Below, piece after piece: positions 42,046-47,566 of a stretch of 64,000 bases of DNA. Where the stretch lies: the NCBI RefSeq assembly GCF_020809045.1, contig NZ_CP078079.1, positions 3,162,001-3,226,000 on the forward strand, written 5' to 3'. The stretch is from Pseudarthrobacter sp. L1SW. Lineage in GTDB: Bacteria; Actinomycetota; Actinomycetes; Actinomycetales; Micrococcaceae. Position numbers and translations under genes: made by a program. Numbering within the stretch: position 1 is the stretch's first letter; every line of letters starts with the position of its first letter. The notes under the pieces were generated by a model. The model made no database searches and was not told the origin of the DNA. It was given only the letters and a program-made list of their open reading frames with translations.

Positions 42046-42063
42046 CTCGTTTGGTAAATGCAG

Positions 42064-42083
42064 CGCGGGGTCACATAACGCCC
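42064..42083. repeat. Left arm of a palindrome split by IS30
   Basis: CGCGGGGTCACATAACGCC lies to the left of the insertion. It matches, in inverted orientation and with two or three differences, GGCGCTAAGTGACCCCGCG at about 43353-43371 on the other side. Before insertion the arms would have formed one hairpin. Confidence 0.6.
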
Positions 42084-42099
42084 GGTTTTCGGTGGCGGA

Positions 42100-43344
42100 T
42101 TCAAGTGGTCGTTGCAACACGTCCTATGCTGCTGATTCTTCCAGTATTTGCTGGAGGGCTTGTGCGGGTGTTTTCCAGCCGAGGGTTTTGCGTAGGCGTC
42201 CGTTGAGTCCTGCGGCAGCGTAGTCGAGGTCTGCGCGGGTGACGGTGGTGAGGTCCATGCCTTTGGGGAAGTACTGTCGCAGGAGTCCGTTGGTGTTCTC
42301 GTTCGTGCCGCGTTGCCAGGGTGAGTGAGGATCGCAGAAGTAGACCTCGGCGCCGGTGGCAATCCTGACGCGTTCGTGAATGCCGACCATCTCAGCGCCT
42401 TGGTCCCAGGTCAGGGACCGGCGCAGCTGGGCCGGCAGGGTCGGAAGGGTTGCCTCGATGGCGGCCAGCACCTGCTCGCCGGTATGTCCGTTAGGCAGGT
42501 GCAGGAGCATCACGAAACGGCTGCTGCGTTCCACGAGGGTTCCGATCGCCCCGGCGCCAGGGGTACCGATGATCAGATCGCCCTCCCAGTGCCCGGGCAC
42601 TGCCCGGTCATCGGCTTCCGCGGGGCGTTCACTGATCAGCAACTCTTTCGGGACCCGGGGCCTTCGCATGCCCGCGCGCCGGTTTGGCTGCCGCACGGCC
42701 CGGCCGGTGCGCAGAGCAGCGGCGAGCTCGGCTCTCAGCCCGCCGCGGCCCTGGATGTAGATGCACTGATAGATAGTCTCCGGGCTGATGCGCATGCTTT
42801 CATCATCGGGGAAATCAATCCGTAACCGGGCACTGATCTGCTCCGGGGACAACCGTTCCCGCGCCGTCAGCATTCCGGCGACGTAAAGCGCCAGGGCCTC
42901 GTTGAAAGCCAGCTTCCGTGCCTTAGGCCTGCGCGCCAGCTTCTGCGCACGGTTCTGCGCCGAGGACGCCAGGTACGGACGGTTGCCCCCGTTCCGGATG
43001 TTCCTGCCCAGCTCCCTGCTGACAGTGGACGGGTTCCGGCCCAAACGCCGGCCGATCTCCCGCACGCCGCACCCGGCCGCCCGCCACACAGCGATCAACT
43101 CGCGCTCATCGAAGGACAGGAACCGCCCGCACGGGGGCTTCTTCGCAGGATCCACCCCACCATGCTGACGGACGATCAACCTGGCCGCAGACAGGGACAT
43201 ACCGGCCACCGCCGCCGCCACCTCATCAGATGCCCCAGAAGACCGCGCCTCCCAGAAAACCCGCACCACCGACTGCAACAGCTCAGGCCGACCAAAACCC
43301 ACAACAACACCCCAATCACTCAGGTGTTGCAACGACCCCTTGAA
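42100..43344 (-). mobile_element. IS30-family insertion sequence (1245 bp)
   Basis: The element is bounded by 21-bp inverted repeats that differ at one base. The left one is TTCAAGTGGTCGTTGCAACAC (42100-42120), and the right one (43324-43344) is the same in inverted orientation with G for T at position 7. One full-length transposase gene fills it. It landed in the loop of a palindromic repeat. A clear target duplication was not seen. Confidence 0.88.
42124..43332 (-). CDS. IS30-family transposase
   Basis: A 402-residue DDE transposase. An N-terminal helix-turn-helix (FDERELIAVWRAAGCGVREI, RLGRNPSTVSREL) recognises the terminal repeats. The catalytic Asp residues are in PGHWEGDLIIG and SLTWDQGAEM, and the Glu is in QRGTNENTNGLLRQYFPKG. 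The gene appears intact. The open frame begins with TTG inside the right terminal repeat, so a later start (for example GTG at 43302) is more likely. Confidence 0.92.
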   Translation of the reverse strand: MQHLSDWGVVVGFGRPELLQSVVRVFWEARSSGASDEVAAAVAGMSLSAARLIVRQHGGVDPAKKPPCGRFLSFDERELIAVWRAAGCGVREIGRRLGRNPSTVSRELGRNIRNGGNRPYLASSAQNRAQKLARRPKARKLAFNEALALYVAGMLTARERLSPEQISARLRIDFPDDESMRISPETIYQCIYIQGRGGLRAELAAALRTGRAVRQPNRRAGMRRPRVPKELLISERPAEADDRAVPGHWEGDLIIGTPGAGAIGTLVERSSRFVMLLHLPNGHTGEQVLAAIEATLPTLPAQLRRSLTWDQGAEMVGIHERVRIATGAEVYFCDPHSPWQRGTNENTNGLLRQYFPKGMDLTTVTRADLDYAAAGLNGRLRKTLGWKTPAQALQQILEESAA

Positions 43345-43412
43345 CCTGCCGGTGCTTATTAGGCGCTAAGTGACCCCGCGTTGGTAGCGAGGGGCCGTGT
43401 GCGGTGCTGTCG

Positions 43413-43799
43413 CTAGCCGAGGTCCGGGAGCCGGCGGTCCAGATACTTGCCGGTCAAGACCAGAACAGCGGTCAGCACCAGAACCGCCGCGAAATACGTG
43501 AGGGTCCCGGCCAGGCCGAAGCTGACACCCACCACGCCGCGCAGGATCAGGTACATGCCCAGCATCAGGATCACAAGCCCTGCCGCAATATGACCCACCC
43601 GCGTGCCTTTGGAAACCGACGTTCCGGGCGGGAACGAGGCCGCGTACTCGCGTGGCTGCCCGAATGCCGCCTCGCCGCTTTCCCCGCTCTCGGCCAAGTG
43701 GCTGCCGACTTCCTGCAGCGTGCTGCTGACCATATCTTCGCTGTGTTTCCGCTGGCGCAGCTCGTAGGCCAGGGACTTCAGGTATTCCTGTGACGACAT
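43413..43799 (-). CDS. HAAS-like two-helix membrane protein
   Basis: A 128-residue protein with a helical N-terminal domain (MSSQEYLKSLAYELRQRKHS) like the HAAS domain that pairs with PadR regulators. Two membrane helices follow (IAAGLVILMLGMYLILRGVV; LTYFAAVLVLTAVLVLTG). Its ATG follows the PadR stop with no gap (TAAATG). HAAS proteins are thought to pair with PadR as a sensor-repressor couple. This is family knowledge. Confidence 0.75.
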   Translation of the reverse strand: MSSQEYLKSLAYELRQRKHSEDMVSSTLQEVGSHLAESGESGEAAFGQPREYAASFPPGTSVSKGTRVGHIAAGLVILMLGMYLILRGVVGVSFGLAGTLTYFAAVLVLTAVLVLTGKYLDRRLPDLG

Positions 43800-44147
43800 T
43801 TAGTGAGCCTTCTTTTCCTCTAGCAGGTCCATGATGAGAACAGAGAACCGATTCCAGTCCCGGGCGGACTCGTGCAGCCGCTGCCGCCCTTCAGGGGTCA
43901 GGGAGTAGAACTTCTTTCCCGGCCCCGCGTCCCCTTCCCGCCATTCGGAGCTGACGAATCCGTCCGTCTCCAGGCGGTTCAGGGCCGGGTACAGCGTGCC
44001 GCCACTAAGCCCGTCAAACCCGGCGCCCCGCAGGACCTGTATCACCCGGTATCCGTACGCGTCATCGCTGCCGGCTATGGCCTGCAGGATGCAGGTGGGA
44101 AGCACGGCCCTCACCCAGTCGCTGGGCCACCGCTTGTCTGAACTCAT
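43800..44147 (-). CDS. PadR-family transcriptional regulator
   Basis: A 115-residue repressor with the PadR winged helix (LPTCILQAIAGSDDAYGYRV, GLSGGTLYPALNRLETDGFV) and a short C-terminal dimerisation helix. There is no ribosome site before the ATG, and a small palindrome, ACTAGATAGT, lies two bases upstream of the start. This points to a leaderless or short-leader transcript with autorepression. It probably controls the adjoining ABC/protease/peptide genes. Confidence 0.88.
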   Translation of the reverse strand: MSSDKRWPSDWVRAVLPTCILQAIAGSDDAYGYRVIQVLRGAGFDGLSGGTLYPALNRLETDGFVSSEWREGDAGPGKKFYSLTPEGRQRLHESARDWNRFSVLIMDLLEEKKAH

Positions 44148-44148
44148 A

Positions 44149-44158
44149 ACTAGATAGT
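44149..44158. promoter_or_regulatory. Candidate PadR operator
   Basis: ACTAGATAGT is a perfect inverted repeat (ACTA/TAGT) adjacent to the PadR start. A second CTAGAT lies 17 bp further at 44167-44172. It is inferred to be the repressor's own site. Confidence 0.35.
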
Positions 44159-44196
44159 GTCACAAGCTAGATTGCCAGGCAACTCAGTGCCGCACG

Positions 44197-44940
44197 TCAG
44201 ATCACATTCCGGCCCTGGTTCCGCCACGCGCCGATGGCCCCAGGAACAGCAATCCAGATCAGCGCGGATGACAGTGCCGCCCACCCGTTTCCGCCTTCCA
44301 CCAGGACGTTGGAGAGCGTGGCGGACTGCAGGAACGGTGTGGCCCGGCCCGCGAAAAGGCCGATAAGGGAATCAAAAATGAACGACTGGAAAAGAACGAA
44401 CACTATGGCCAGTGGCGTGGACAGAAGCGCCGAGGCCACCGCGGCGCCGGATACGGAGCCGATGACGCTAACACAGGCCAGCAGCCGGGCGCTCTGGGCA
44501 AGATCTCCCAGCACAAGGCCGTTACCTTGCAGAGCCGACACCACAGCGGCGACAGCCACTGCCACCAGGCTGATGCACAGCACAATTCCCAGCGCAAAGG
44601 ACGCGACGGCAAGGTACTTGGCCAGCAGCAGCGTTCCCCGGGCGGGTTGCAGCGTAAAAAACTTGATGACGTCCCGGTGCTGCCAGTCGGAGGTGATTCC
44701 CATAATCGCAATGATGGGTGCGCCTAGACCTGCCGGCAGCGCGAGTGCCGCCAGCATCAGGGATACATCGATTTGCTCGCCGCGGCCCGAGGACACGGCA
44801 ACAAATACACCCACAATCACGACGCCGACAGCGGCCATGGACAGCAGCAGCCACCGTGCGCTGCGGGTATCCACCAGCTTCCGCATCTCGACATAGACGG
44901 ACACTGTCAATAGCTGCGGTAAGGAATTGGCGATGGACAT
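44197..44940 (-). CDS. ABC-2 type permease, BcrB/immunity-like
   Basis: A 247-residue membrane protein with about six helices and an N-terminal cytoplasmic helix (LLTVSVYVEMRKLVDTRSAR), the pattern of single-subunit ABC-2 permeases such as BcrB and lantibiotic LanE/G. Its ATG is one base after the stop of the ATPase gene, so the two form one transporter. In the Trp-rich-peptide locus it probably removes the toxic peptide from the membrane. Drug export is the alternative. Gene boundaries are clear. Confidence 0.82.
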   Translation of the reverse strand: MSIANSLPQLLTVSVYVEMRKLVDTRSARWLLLSMAAVGVVIVGVFVAVSSGRGEQIDVSLMLAALALPAGLGAPIIAIMGITSDWQHRDVIKFFTLQPARGTLLLAKYLAVASFALGIVLCISLVAVAVAAVVSALQGNGLVLGDLAQSARLLACVSVIGSVSGAAVASALLSTPLAIVFVLFQSFIFDSLIGLFAGRATPFLQSATLSNVLVEGGNGWAALSSALIWIAVPGAIGAWRNQGRNVI

Positions 44941-44941
44941 C

Positions 44942-45859
44942 TTATCTGCTCTCCCTCTCGCGGGCCGCCGCAAACTCCGGCGACGTGAGTCCGCTGTAAT
45001 AGTCTTCCAGACTGGCTCCCGGCTTCCTGCGCAGGAGGCTGATGTGGACATGGTGGCGCCACATGCTTTCCCCCACCCGCTCAGGCGCCGCATCAACCAG
45101 GACTACAGCCCCGGAGTCGCCGCTGGCCCGCAGCCCCTTTATGCCGTCGGCCTCCAGGGCGAGCTCAACGCTCCGCAGATCCGGGCCCTGGACCTCCGTG
45201 ACGTCGGTCCGGGTGAGATCGTGGATGGTGGAGGTGCTGACAATGCGGCCCCTGTCGATGATGACCACGTTGTGGGCGTAGGTCTCGAGTTCGTTCAGCA
45301 AGTGGCTGGACACGAGCACCGAGCCGCCGTTCGCTGCGTAACCAGTGAGGAACGTTTTCAGCCACGACATGCCCTCGATGTCCAGTCCGTTGGCCGGCTC
45401 GTCCAGGACGAGGAATTTCGGCTCGCCCAGGAGTGCAATTGCCAGGCTGAGCCGCTGCCGCATGCCAAGCGAGAGGGACCTGACCTTCCTCCGGGAAACC
45501 TGTGAGAGTCCCACAGCAACCAGGACGGCGTCCACCCGGCTCTTCGGAAGCCGCATCATGATTGCTGGCAGCGCCACCGTCTCGCGGACCGACCTTCCCG
45601 GGTGGTGAGCGGACGGGTCGAGCAGGAACCCGGCCTCGATCCCCGGATTCTCCAGGTCCTTATACGCCATCCCGTCGAAGGTGATCGACCCTTCATCGGG
45701 GCGAACGAGGCCCGCAATCATCTTGAGGGTCGTGGACTTGCCGGAACCGTTCGGACCGATGAACCCGGTGACCGAGCCGGGCCGGCAACTGAAGCTGACG
45801 CCTTGCACGGCATGCACATCACCGTAGGATTTGGACACATTGCTAATAAGGAGAGTCAT
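44942..45859 (-). CDS. ABC transporter ATP-binding protein, BcrA-like
   Basis: A 305-residue ATPase with Walker A GPNGSGKS (near residue 40), signature LSLGMRQRLSLA, Walker B KFLVLDEPANGLD and the H-loop VSSHLLNE. The C-terminal 90 residues are the extension seen in BcrA/LanF ATPases that handle peptides. Its ATG overlaps the protease stop (ATGA) and its stop almost touches the permease start. The three genes are co-translated. Confidence 0.88.
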   Translation of the reverse strand: MTLLISNVSKSYGDVHAVQGVSFSCRPGSVTGFIGPNGSGKSTTLKMIAGLVRPDEGSITFDGMAYKDLENPGIEAGFLLDPSAHHPGRSVRETVALPAIMMRLPKSRVDAVLVAVGLSQVSRRKVRSLSLGMRQRLSLAIALLGEPKFLVLDEPANGLDIEGMSWLKTFLTGYAANGGSVLVSSHLLNELETYAHNVVIIDRGRIVSTSTIHDLTRTDVTEVQGPDLRSVELALEADGIKGLRASGDSGAVVLVDAAPERVGESMWRHHVHISLLRRKPGASLEDYYSGLTSPEFAAARERESR

Positions 45860-46593
45860 GGAACTTTCACCGGACCGATTTGTGACGTTTGTCTGATTGT
45901 TGACCTGGAGCAGAACAAAAACACCATCGCAAAGATGGTGATGTCCAGCGGAATATAGACCCAAGCGTACCCCGGGTGGTACATCAGGTCCGCCGTAACA
46001 AGCGCCGTGATATTCGCCAATGCATGATACAGGACTGCGGGCCAGAGCGATTCGAATTTAAACGCGAGAGCCAGCGCCAGGCAAGCGAAAACAAAACGGT
46101 CCACATACATGATGGAAAGCGTCGAGAAATGAAGGGCGGCAAAAGTAAGTGAACTGACTAAAACAACGGCCATCCGCCCTTTTAGTGAACTTTTCACGCC
46201 CAGAAGTAACGCCAGCGGCAGTCCGCGGAAAATGAGTTCCTCCAGCACCACGCTAATGGGGGCAGTGGCTGCCGCCAACGGATCGCCTTCGGCAAGCAAG
46301 ATGAGCAGGGCAAGTGCCAGCAGCATCACCACCGCAGCGGACAGCCACGCCCAGAGGCCTGTCAAGTCCGGACCCGCCACGGGAATCCGGAATGCCCGCA
46401 GGAGACTGAACCGTCGACTGGCGAGTGCAGGCAGCACCAGCAAACACGCTACGACGGTGAGGGAAACGGCCATGGACAGATCCTCACCAAGGACGTGTAC
46501 CGGCATCAGCTCATAGCTGAGGGCTATAACGAGTGTGACGCCGGCGTAGGCAAGGACGGCCCTGGTGACAGCATGCGTAATAAGTCTTTTCAT
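45856..46593 (-). CDS. CPBP (Abi/CAAX-like) intramembrane protease
   Basis: A 245-residue, roughly eight-helix membrane protein with all three CPBP motifs: EELIFRG (near 125), FAALHFS (near 155) and LYHALANIT (near 195). The conserved Glu and His residues coordinate zinc. CPBP proteins process prenylated or exported peptides and give immunity in several bacteriocin loci. It follows the Trp-rich peptide by 83 bp, including a hairpin, and overlaps the ATPase gene by four bases. Confidence 0.87.
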   Translation of the reverse strand: MKRLITHAVTRAVLAYAGVTLVIALSYELMPVHVLGEDLSMAVSLTVVACLLVLPALASRRFSLLRAFRIPVAGPDLTGLWAWLSAAVVMLLALALLILLAEGDPLAAATAPISVVLEELIFRGLPLALLLGVKSSLKGRMAVVLVSSLTFAALHFSTLSIMYVDRFVFACLALALAFKFESLWPAVLYHALANITALVTADLMYHPGYAWVYIPLDITIFAMVFLFCSRSTIRQTSQIGPVKVP

Positions 46594-46622
46594 GTCATAT
46601 TCCGGTTGATTGTCGGGGGCCG

Positions 46623-46665
46623 CAGCAGCTGGATGACGGTTGGCCTGACTGCCATCCAGCCGCTG
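46623..46665 (-). terminator. Hairpin between the Trp-rich peptide and CPBP genes
   Basis: CAGCAGCTGGATG (46623-46635) and CATCCAGCCGCTG (46653-46665) pair with one mismatch and a 17-base loop. In this position it could reduce read-through, giving more precursor than immunity protein. Confidence 0.5.
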
Positions 46666-46676
46666 GTCAAGCAGAC

Positions 46677-47153
46677 CTACCAGCCGAAGAAGTAGCGGCG
46701 CAGTTCAAGGTAGAAGTCCCACAGGGAGCCGCCGATGAACCAGCTGATCGTGTTACGGATCCAGCTTGCCAACCCGTTCCACCAGTTGATGAACGCATTC
46801 CAACCCCACCGGACGGCGTTTACCATTGCGTTCCAGATCCAAGGCGCCGCGGCCCGGATCCAGTTCAGCACGGGCCCGATATTAAGGCGCTTCTGTGCGT
46901 CAGCCGCGCCCTTGACCGCATCCGGCGTGGCTGACGAAGCCAGCGCAGGCGCGGACGGCAGCGTTACTACCGATGCACCCTGCGCCGATGCCGGCGCCAC
47001 AACGGACACGGACGCCGGCGAGGCTGAGACCGCCGCGGGTCCGGAAGCAACGCGGACAGCCGCAGGTGCGGACGCAAGAATCGCGCCCGCAAGCGCTACC
47101 GCCACACCCCTCTTTTTCCAATTCATACCTGAGCGGCTCTTAACCTGGCTCAT
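46677..47153 (-). CDS. Secreted Trp-rich peptide precursor, bacteriocin-like
   Basis: A 158-residue protein with no recognised family. Residues 1-30 are a Sec-type signal (WKKRGVAVALAGAILASAPA). Residues 31-88 are a low-complexity Ala/Ser/Val/Pro region, and residues 90-158 are a cationic, strongly amphipathic Trp-rich module. Eleven of the last 69 residues are Trp, several about seven apart (98, 105, 118, 125, 131, 138, 145). A tandem repeat is visible as WIWNAMVN and WGWNAFIN (105-112, 116-123). There are no cysteines. The ATG at 47153 has GGGGGAA eight bases upstream. Followed by a CPBP protease and an immunity-type ABC transporter, it resembles an Aureocin-like membrane-active peptide with leader. 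This is an inference. Confidence 0.68.
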   Translation of the reverse strand: MSQVKSRSGMNWKKRGVAVALAGAILASAPAAVRVASGPAAVSASPASVSVVAPASAQGASVVTLPSAPALASSATPDAVKGAADAQKRLNIGPVLNWIRAAAPWIWNAMVNAVRWGWNAFINWWNGLASWIRNTISWFIGGSLWDFYLELRRYFFGW

Positions 47154-47196
47154 GCAGTTCCCCCTTTTGATTGTGTTCACCTTGAACACGGCGCCA

Positions 47197-47226
47197 AATA
47201 TAAATCGGTGGAACAGTATAAGTCAA
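47197..47226 (-). promoter_or_regulatory. Promoter of the Trp-rich peptide gene
   Basis: On the minus strand TTGACT (47226-47221) and TATATT (47202-47197) are separated by 18 bp, a good housekeeping-type promoter, about 45 bp before the start codon. The surrounding DNA is clearly more AT-rich than the rest of the window. Confidence 0.6.
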
Positions 47227-47566
47227 ATAAGTTTAGTAACTCTACTTTCCGGCAATCCGGTCGCATCGGTTTTTTGGTGATATTCGGCATACTGGCGTCA
47301 AACTCCCGGTGTACTATCAGATTCTTTACATGAACAACAGTCATAGGGATTTGAGAGTGCGGGATCATTTCCCCATCGTCTTTGGCTTTCAGCTGGAATC
47401 CGCACCGTGCATTGCATGGGCGGGGACGCCGTCGCTTGAAGGACTGCCGTGGCGGGAAGGCGGAATTGGTGCGCCACCGCCGTCGTCCGTTATTTTCCCG
47501 GCCCCGTGGGTACGCCGCTGGTAGTGTTCCTGCATTCGGAACGGCACGCGAACGGGGTGATTTCTC
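47227..47566. other. AT-rich intergenic region, no recognised gene
   Basis: These 340 bp separate the peptide promoter from the histidine phosphatase. They are AT-rich at the left, then return to typical composition. A 71-residue open frame (47309-47524) has no ribosome site and no family resemblance. Confidence 0.5.

What the first reader, a model, noticed from the sequence alone, without database searches (positions are those of the whole stretch)
43413..47230. Possible new bacteriocin-type locus built on a secreted Trp-rich peptide
The sequence shows a 158-residue exported precursor whose last 69 residues contain 11 Trp, many about seven apart, an internal tandem repeat and no Cys. It is followed on the same strand by a CPBP protease, a BcrA-like ATPase, an ABC-2 permease, PadR and a HAAS-like protein. 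Small gaps and overlaps tie these genes together. Known families: CPBP proteins and BcrAB/LanFEG-type ABC pairs confer immunity in bacteriocin loci. The peptide matches no family I know. The antibacterial role is an inference.
Basis: partly seen in the sequence, partly recalled or inferred. Interest (0 to 1): 0.8.

Follow-up and report, generated by a model that had tools for sequence, protein, structure and literature searches.

The report
Secreted tryptophan-rich bacteriocin-like peptide cassette
A soil-type actinobacterium carries an inserted gene cassette for a small secreted five-helix peptide with its own membrane protease and pump; many relatives have lost the peptide but kept the pump, as expected for an antibacterial toxin with its immunity genes, and the peptide belongs to a family absent from the protein-family databases searched.

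Summary
At 46677-47153 (-) lies a 158-residue exported precursor. Its last 69 residues hold 11 Trp and no Cys. Behind it, tightly packed, come CPBP protease, BcrA-type ATPase, ABC-2 permease, PadR and HAAS-like genes. The 'tandem repeat' is only a weak 7-residue periodicity.
The peptide matches no Pfam, NCBIfam, PHROGs or PDB family. Profile searches found homologues in several other Micrococcaceae genera, two other Micrococcales families and a Streptomyces-type genus. They share a signal peptide, a variable pro-region and a conserved C-terminal core, predicted confidently (pLDDT 91-92) as a compact five-helix domain.
CPBP genes sit beside the peptide in 11 of 20 genomes (0.24 expected). In Micrococcales the ATPases form one clade apart from the host's other ABC ATPases. 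The cassette is an insertion: close relatives have an empty site. In about ten genomes the peptide is deleted or broken while the ABC pair is intact; CPBP usually disappears with the peptide.
Best explanation: a new family of exported, helical-bundle bacteriocin peptides, with ABC immunity, CPBP tied to the producer role (maturation or producer-side immunity) and PadR/HAAS control. Antibacterial activity is inferred, not shown.

The parts
46677..47153 (-). Exported pre-pro-peptide, 158 aa: signal peptide (about residues 1-30), Ala/Ser/Thr-rich pro-region, conserved KR before the core, Trp-rich core about residues 88/90-158
   Evidence: homologues; core under purifying selection, dN/dS 0.03-0.37, mostly below 0.25
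46680..46892 (-). Core region: five predicted helices (core residues 6-15, 17-29, 31-40, 43-53, 57-69), pLDDT 90.6, pTM 0.75
   Evidence: on alignment A4; the same five-helix plan in a distant member, pLDDT 92.1
47197..47226 (-). Promoter-like site TTGACT-18-TATATT, 10 of 12 consensus matches, 43 bases before the peptide ATG
   Evidence: consensus match only, 1.1 expected by chance in the region
46594..46676 (-). Spacer between peptide and CPBP genes with a strong hairpin and no T run; equivalent hairpins of unrelated sequence in G106, G185, G400, G219 and G093; possible attenuator or RNA stabiliser setting the ratio of peptide to downstream proteins
   Evidence: z -2.4; z -3.2, -4.1, -3.9, -6.4, -7.1
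45856..46593 (-). CPBP (Rce1/Abi-like) intramembrane endopeptidase with intact EExxxR, FxxxH and HxxxN motifs
   Evidence: PF02517 E 9.6e-12; invariant E118 E119 R123 H155 H190 N194 across seven loci
44942..45859 (-). ABC ATPase, BcrA/LanF-like; candidate immunity
   Evidence: dedicated Micrococcales clade, support 96/95
44197..44940 (-). ABC-2-type permease; candidate immunity
   Evidence: weak PF12730; homologues in 13 of 150 genus genomes, mostly beside this kind of ATPase
43800..44147 (-). PadR-like transcriptional regulator
   Evidence: PF03551 E 8e-18
43413..43799 (-). HAAS-like membrane protein, probable partner of PadR
   Evidence: PF22564 26.9 bits, cut-off 27
42124..43332 (-). Transposase with rve integrase core and HTH_38 (IS30-like), inside the inserted segment; part of the mobile context, not of the proposed function
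42050..47460 (.). Inserted segment, absent at this site in the close relatives G001, G003, G011 and G007; also absent in G006, where the left-hand neighbour gene is missing too

Best explanation
The cassette most likely makes a secreted antibacterial (bacteriocin-type) peptide and protects its maker from it. Proposed working: the precursor is exported by its Sec-type signal peptide. The disordered pro-region is removed, probably at or near the conserved KR, to release a 69-71 residue Trp-rich cationic five-helix peptide that acts on membranes of related bacteria. The ABC ATPase and permease remove the peptide from the producer's membrane (BcrAB/LanFEG-like immunity). The CPBP protease is tied to the producer role, either helping maturation or degrading peptide in the producer's membrane. 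The HAAS-like membrane protein and PadR sense peptide or membrane stress and set expression. Shown here: sequence anatomy, homologous family, predicted fold, linkage, accessory insertion, and ABC retention after peptide loss. Inferred: export, processing site, membrane target, killing, the direction of the ABC pump, and the role of CPBP.
For: Homologues down to about 20-35% identity keep signal peptide, variable pro-region and conserved core. Core dN/dS is 0.03-0.37 (mostly under 0.25) while the pre-pro region is looser. The core is predicted as a compact five-helix domain in two distant members; Cys-free helix bundles with exposed Trp/Tyr are common in circular and leaderless bacteriocins (PMC6072434). 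A CPBP gene lies within 6 kb in 11 of 20 genomes against 0.24 expected, p about 3e-17; thinned to 15 loci, 7 against 0.19, p about 1e-10. Locus ATPases of Micrococcales form one clade apart from the other ABC ATPases of the host and of a Streptomyces-type genome. The cassette is patchy (5 of 198 genus genomes have a convincing full-length peptide) and inserted. Peptide loss with ABC kept: G066, a clean deletion that leaves the peptide start joined to the CPBP end; G340; and seven genomes at the G093 site, two of which keep the last CPBP codons. G373 has a stop inside the core with all other genes intact. ABC immunity is established for AS-48 and MR10A/B enterocins (PMC8306556). Abi/CPBP proteins take part in bacteriocin self-immunity (Kjos 2010, cited in PMC4467070).
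Against: No activity data exist. Net core charge is only +3 and none of the helices has an outstanding hydrophobic moment (shuffle p 0.08-0.28). No solved structure matches the model, so the saposin-like comparison rests on helix count and size only. Distant homologues often lack CPBP and ABC genes. Streptomyces-type ATPase neighbours fall outside the dedicated clade. The core is conserved rather than diversifying. In the B. subtilis YydF locus the analogous ABC pair gives little resistance (PMC7026026).
Confidence: 0.7

Rival explanations
1. The peptide is a signal or envelope-stress effector, not a weapon: a secreted pheromone-like or membrane-modulating helical peptide sensed through HAAS-PadR, with CPBP and ABC for its processing and turnover.
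For: PadR-HAAS is the only recognisable partner in several distant loci, and HAAS-PadR dyads are proposed membrane-stress sensors (PMC11237479). The core is conserved.
Against: Patchy presence and insertion at varied sites. The ABC pair persists without peptide in about ten genomes, and PadR/HAAS is not what persists at the G093 site. A 70-residue Trp-rich globular core is large for a pheromone.
Confidence: 0.15
2. The peptide is a bacteriocin, but the ABC pair is mainly its exporter or maturation transporter, and CPBP is the immunity protein.
For: Abi/CPBP proteins have been shown in self-immunity elsewhere; in some circular bacteriocins ABC proteins serve both secretion and partial immunity (PMC6131525).
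Against: The precursor has its own signal peptide. The ABC pair is kept where peptide and CPBP are gone; an exporter without cargo should decay.
Confidence: 0.1
3. The peptide is a structural or lipid-binding surface protein (biosurfactant-, chaplin- or lipoprotein-like), with membrane stress genes nearby.
For: Trp-rich, amphipathic, exported protein by sequence; no activity known.
Against: Linked to immunity-type genes, lost repeatedly, absent from most close relatives.
Confidence: 0.04
4. Chance neighbours: an orphan exported protein placed beside unrelated CPBP and ABC genes.
For: ABC ATPases are abundant: 51 matches in this genome, 126 in a Streptomyces-type one.
Against: The linkage recurs at different chromosomal sites and in other families, and the ATPases form one clade.
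Confidence: 0.01

Closest known systems
Saposin-like-fold circular and leaderless bacteriocins (enterocin AS-48, lacticin Q, aureocin A53)
   Same: Cys-free, about 50-70 residues, bundle of 3-5 helices, Trp/Tyr exposure, ABC transporters giving immunity in some of them.
   Different: Here the precursor has a Sec-type signal and a long pro-region. There is no sequence-profile match to lacticin Q/aureocin A53/epidermicin, no Foldseek match to any solved bacteriocin of this type, and no DUF95 cyclisation protein in the locus.
YydFGHIJ / Epe epipeptide locus of Bacillus subtilis
   Same: Peptide precursor, membrane protease and ABC ATPase-permease pair in one operon; ABC proposed as self-protection (PMC7026026).
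   Different: No radical SAM epimerase here; the core is about 70 residues rather than 17; no sequence relation of the peptides was sought beyond the family scans.
Class II (double-glycine) bacteriocin loci with Abi/CPBP immunity proteins, such as plantaricin loci
   Same: A CPBP-family membrane protein beside a small exported antibacterial peptide.
   Different: No GG leader and no peptidase-containing ABC exporter; the partner is a BcrA/LanF-type pair.
BcrAB and LanFEG immunity transporters
   Same: The ATPase scores best among NCBIfam models with TIGR03740 'lantibiotic protection ABC transporter'; ATPase plus ABC-2-type permease.
   Different: 177 bits against a 310-bit cut-off, so not a member of that model; a single permease gene of unassigned family.
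HAAS-PadR sensor dyads
   Same: PadR followed directly by a HAAS-like membrane protein.
   Different: HAAS score just under its cut-off; several related loci keep the HAAS-like gene without PadR nearby.

Membership tests
Bacteriocin (functional class) | Ribosomally made, exported peptide that kills or inhibits related bacteria | not testable with these tools
   Export inferred from the signal peptide; activity needs an assay.
Bacteriocin (functional class) | Linked self-immunity genes | tested here: inconclusive
   Genomic criteria are met: dedicated ABC clade, conserved linkage, orphan ABC pairs after peptide loss. Immunity itself not assayed.
Leaderless aureocin A53/lacticin Q-like bacteriocins | No N-terminal leader | tested here: not met
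   The intact homologues carry a signal peptide and pro-region.
Leaderless aureocin A53/lacticin Q-like bacteriocins | Sequence-profile similarity | tested here: not met
   hhalign probability 0.4-3.5%; the reference sequences were checked against PDB entries 2n8p, 2n8o and 6sif.
Saposin-like fold | 4-5 helices packed in V-shaped leaves around a hydrophobic core | tested here: inconclusive
   Five helices, pLDDT 91-92, but no Foldseek or VIA match; helix packing not compared directly.
Circular bacteriocins | DUF95/SpoIIM cyclisation protein in the locus | tested here: not met
   No DUF95 among the locus genes; circularisation itself not testable.
Lactococcin 972, SdpC and other exported bacteriocin families with Pfam/NCBIfam models | Match to the family model | tested here: not met
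   No Pfam or NCBIfam family at E <= 1 for the window peptide; only non-credible sub-threshold hits for ten homologues.
CPBP/Rce1-like intramembrane endopeptidase | PF02517 and EExxxR, FxxxH, HxxxN motifs | tested here: met
PadR regulator | PF03551 above cut-off | tested here: met
   64.7 bits against 27.
HAAS domain | PF22564 above cut-off and adjacent PadR | tested here: inconclusive
   26.9 bits against 27; PadR directly adjacent.
LanF lantibiotic-protection ATPase (TIGR03740) | Score above the curated cut-off | tested here: not met
   177 against 309.75 bits.

The most novel reading that the evidence does not exclude
A previously undescribed, widespread family of Sec-exported, Trp-rich, five-helix bacteriocins of Actinomycetota, recognisable from Micrococcaceae to Streptomyces, with a modular immunity and control set (ABC pair, CPBP, PadR-HAAS), an attenuator-like hairpin behind the structural gene, and a population structure of producers and resistant 'orphan-immunity' strains.
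Probability: 0.55. Interest if true: 0.75.

Novelty: new variant of a known kind. Interest (0 to 1): 0.63.

Why it matters
No family model was found for this peptide, so annotation pipelines would be expected to leave such loci as hypothetical proteins. If active, it adds a bacteriocin type to Arthrobacter-like soil actinobacteria and Streptomyces, for which the library searches turned up no similar peptide. The orphan ABC pairs give ready-made natural controls (same site, with and without peptide) to separate the roles of CPBP and ABC in immunity, a role that remains unclear for several CPBP proteins in bacteriocin loci.

Tried and rejected
Rejected: phage origin (no phage, viral-contig or credible PHROGs match). 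Rejected: plasmid relatives of the window peptide itself. Rejected: membership in leaderless lacticin Q/aureocin A53 bacteriocins, despite an eye-catching LNxGPxLxW resemblance. Rejected: anti-phage defence, since PADLOC hits touch only the generic ATPase. Led nowhere: both genome-contig scans, which needed exact motif words; PDB sequence hits of the profile to unrelated proteins; the structure searches. Hits in G222, G420, G108, G585, G693, G865, G1161 and G1290 were judged noise: no exported small ORF or no locus context. The Streptomyces-type ATPase neighbours (G1477, G1496) were considered as support, but the tree puts them outside the dedicated clade; G1477's locus ATPase is only narrowly the best of 126 matches. 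Literature searches found no description of this locus; subscription papers are mostly not held.
Full report
WHAT IS THERE. The window lies at 3162001-3226000 of a complete 4.1 Mb genome. On the minus strand the order is peptide 47153-46677, CPBP 46593-45856, ABC ATPase 45859-44942, permease 44940-44197, PadR 44147-43800, HAAS-like 43799-43413, then an IS30-like transposase 43332-42124. Gaps between the six operon genes are 83, -4, 1, 49 and 0 bases. The internal repeat is only a 7-residue periodicity (p 0.0006 for that offset, 0.007 for any offset), with no tandem repeat in the DNA.

A FAMILY WITHOUT A NAME. The peptide has no Pfam or NCBIfam match and no credible PHROGs match, and ten homologues have none above cut-off either. 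Genus search: 198 genomes, convincing full-length homologues in G106, G185 (68-69%), G093 (43%) and G067 (36%) besides the window. A core profile then found members in other genera of the same family (G400, G383, G373, G219, G246, G206, G250, G223, G276, G424, and remnants in G340 and G325), in other families of the order (G787, E 1.6e-23; G764, E 1e-5), and in a large-genome genus, Streptomyces-like (G1004, G1496, G1477, G1463, G1442, G1504, G1509). A Streptomyces coeruleorubidus plasmid carries one too, annotated 'hypothetical protein', about 0.5 kb from a CPBP gene. Members share a signal peptide (TAT-like in G424), a divergent pro-region and a conserved C-terminal core. Codon comparison gives dN/dS 0.03-0.37 in the core, mostly under 0.25, and higher values in the pre-pro part; synonymous sites are near saturation, so these are rough.

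FOLD. AlphaFold2 on the 16-row core alignment gives pLDDT 90.6, pTM 0.75, five helices. A distant member gives pLDDT 92.1, pTM 0.80, again five helices. Neither finds a solved relative. Cys-free bundles of three to five helices with exposed Trp or Tyr are the common theme of circular and leaderless bacteriocins (PMC6072434). The comparison is by plan only: profile comparison with lacticin Q, aureocin A53 and epidermicin is negative.

PARTNERS. In the genus, G106, G185 and G093 repeat peptide-CPBP-ATPase-permease. In G067 the CPBP is fused to a DUF418 domain and the PadR-HAAS-ATPase-permease set is convergent. G400, G219, G246, G383 and G373 repeat the set in other genera. G764 has ATPase and CPBP. 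G206, G250, G223, G276 and G787 have only PadR-HAAS beside the peptide. Genomes hold 1-8 CPBP genes each, so a CPBP within 6 kb of the peptide is expected in 0.24 of 20 genomes; 11 are seen (p about 3e-17; thinned set 7 of 15 against 0.19, p about 1e-10). All 13 Micrococcales locus ATPases tested, orphan pairs included, fall in one clade (96/95) that excludes the nearest other ABC ATPases of the host and of a Streptomyces-type genome; the two Streptomyces-type neighbours do not join it. The CPBP proteins keep every catalytic motif: E118 E119 R123 H155 H190 N194 invariant over seven loci.

AN ACCESSORY CASSETTE. In four of the closest relatives window position 42047 is followed within at most about 140 bases by the equivalent of 47460, so the whole 5.4 kb with its transposase is an insertion here; a fifth (G006) also lacks the cassette. 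Other genus members carry the cassette at other sites.

PEPTIDE LOST, PUMP KEPT. G066 is G185's locus with one clean deletion: the peptide's ribosome-binding site and first codons are joined to the last CPBP codons, and ATPase and permease are intact. G340 has lost CPBP and parts of the peptide but keeps ATPase, permease and HAAS-like gene. G373 has a stop inside the core and all else intact. At the G093 site, G121, G004, G143 and G042 show the same breakpoints with the ABC pair intact and no peptide or CPBP; G143 and G121 still carry the last 14 or so CPBP codons and stop, which favours deletion over later gain. G016, G005 and G081 also have the ABC pair alone in the same neighbourhood. G012 is different: its deletion also removed the ATPase and fused the signal peptide to the permease. 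Thus the ABC pair commonly outlives the peptide, and CPBP goes with the peptide. That is the pattern expected if the ABC pair protects against peptide made by neighbours. These are about four independent events, not ten.

EXPRESSION. A promoter-like site lies 43 bases upstream of the peptide ATG (consensus only). The peptide-CPBP spacer folds into a strong hairpin here and, with unrelated sequence, in G106, G185, G400, G219 and G093 (z -2.4 to -7.1), but not in the stretch tested from G383. A hairpin behind the structural gene would let a toxin be made in excess over its immunity proteins; this is inference.

MECHANISM. See best explanation. HAAS-PadR dyads are proposed alternatives to two-component membrane-stress sensors (PMC11237479). 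ABC immunity to saposin-like enterocins is shown by genetics (PMC8306556). Peptide plus membrane protease plus ABC pair is also the plan of the YydF epipeptide locus, where however the ABC pair contributes little to resistance (PMC7026026), a caution for the present inference.

VERDICT. A real, conserved, mobile bacteriocin-type cassette around an uncatalogued peptide family; function by analogy and population genetics, not by assay. New variant of a known kind.

Noticed in passing
window 42124-43332 (-): IS30-like transposase gene directly behind the cassette and inside the inserted segment; may have brought or moved it. Terminal repeats were not examined.
   Followed up: partly
window 46594-46676: Strong RNA hairpin between peptide and CPBP genes, matched in five related loci by hairpins of unrelated sequence.
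   Followed up: partly
L019:6702-7598 (-) (genome G012): Deletion fuses the signal-peptide part of the peptide gene in frame to the ABC permease, giving a 298-codon open chimera; ATPase and CPBP gone.
   Followed up: partly
L018:8654-10849 (genome G067): CPBP domain fused to a DUF418 membrane domain beside a peptide homologue.
   Followed up: no
L100:4686-5159, NZ_CP137525.1 (Streptomyces coeruleorubidus plasmid): Distant peptide homologue annotated as hypothetical protein, next to a divergently placed CPBP gene; a very similar pair in genome G1509 (L098).
   Followed up: partly
L017:8273-8632 (genome G093): Extra 119-residue membrane-like ORF between peptide and CPBP genes, no Pfam match.
   Followed up: no
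L061:7098-7628 (genome G424): Peptide homologue with a twin-arginine-like signal (RRTVLKSLG) and no recognisable immunity genes nearby.
   Followed up: no
L116 (genome G032, contig end): Permease, PadR and HAAS-like genes at a contig end with the permease frame broken; may be another decaying cassette.
   Followed up: no
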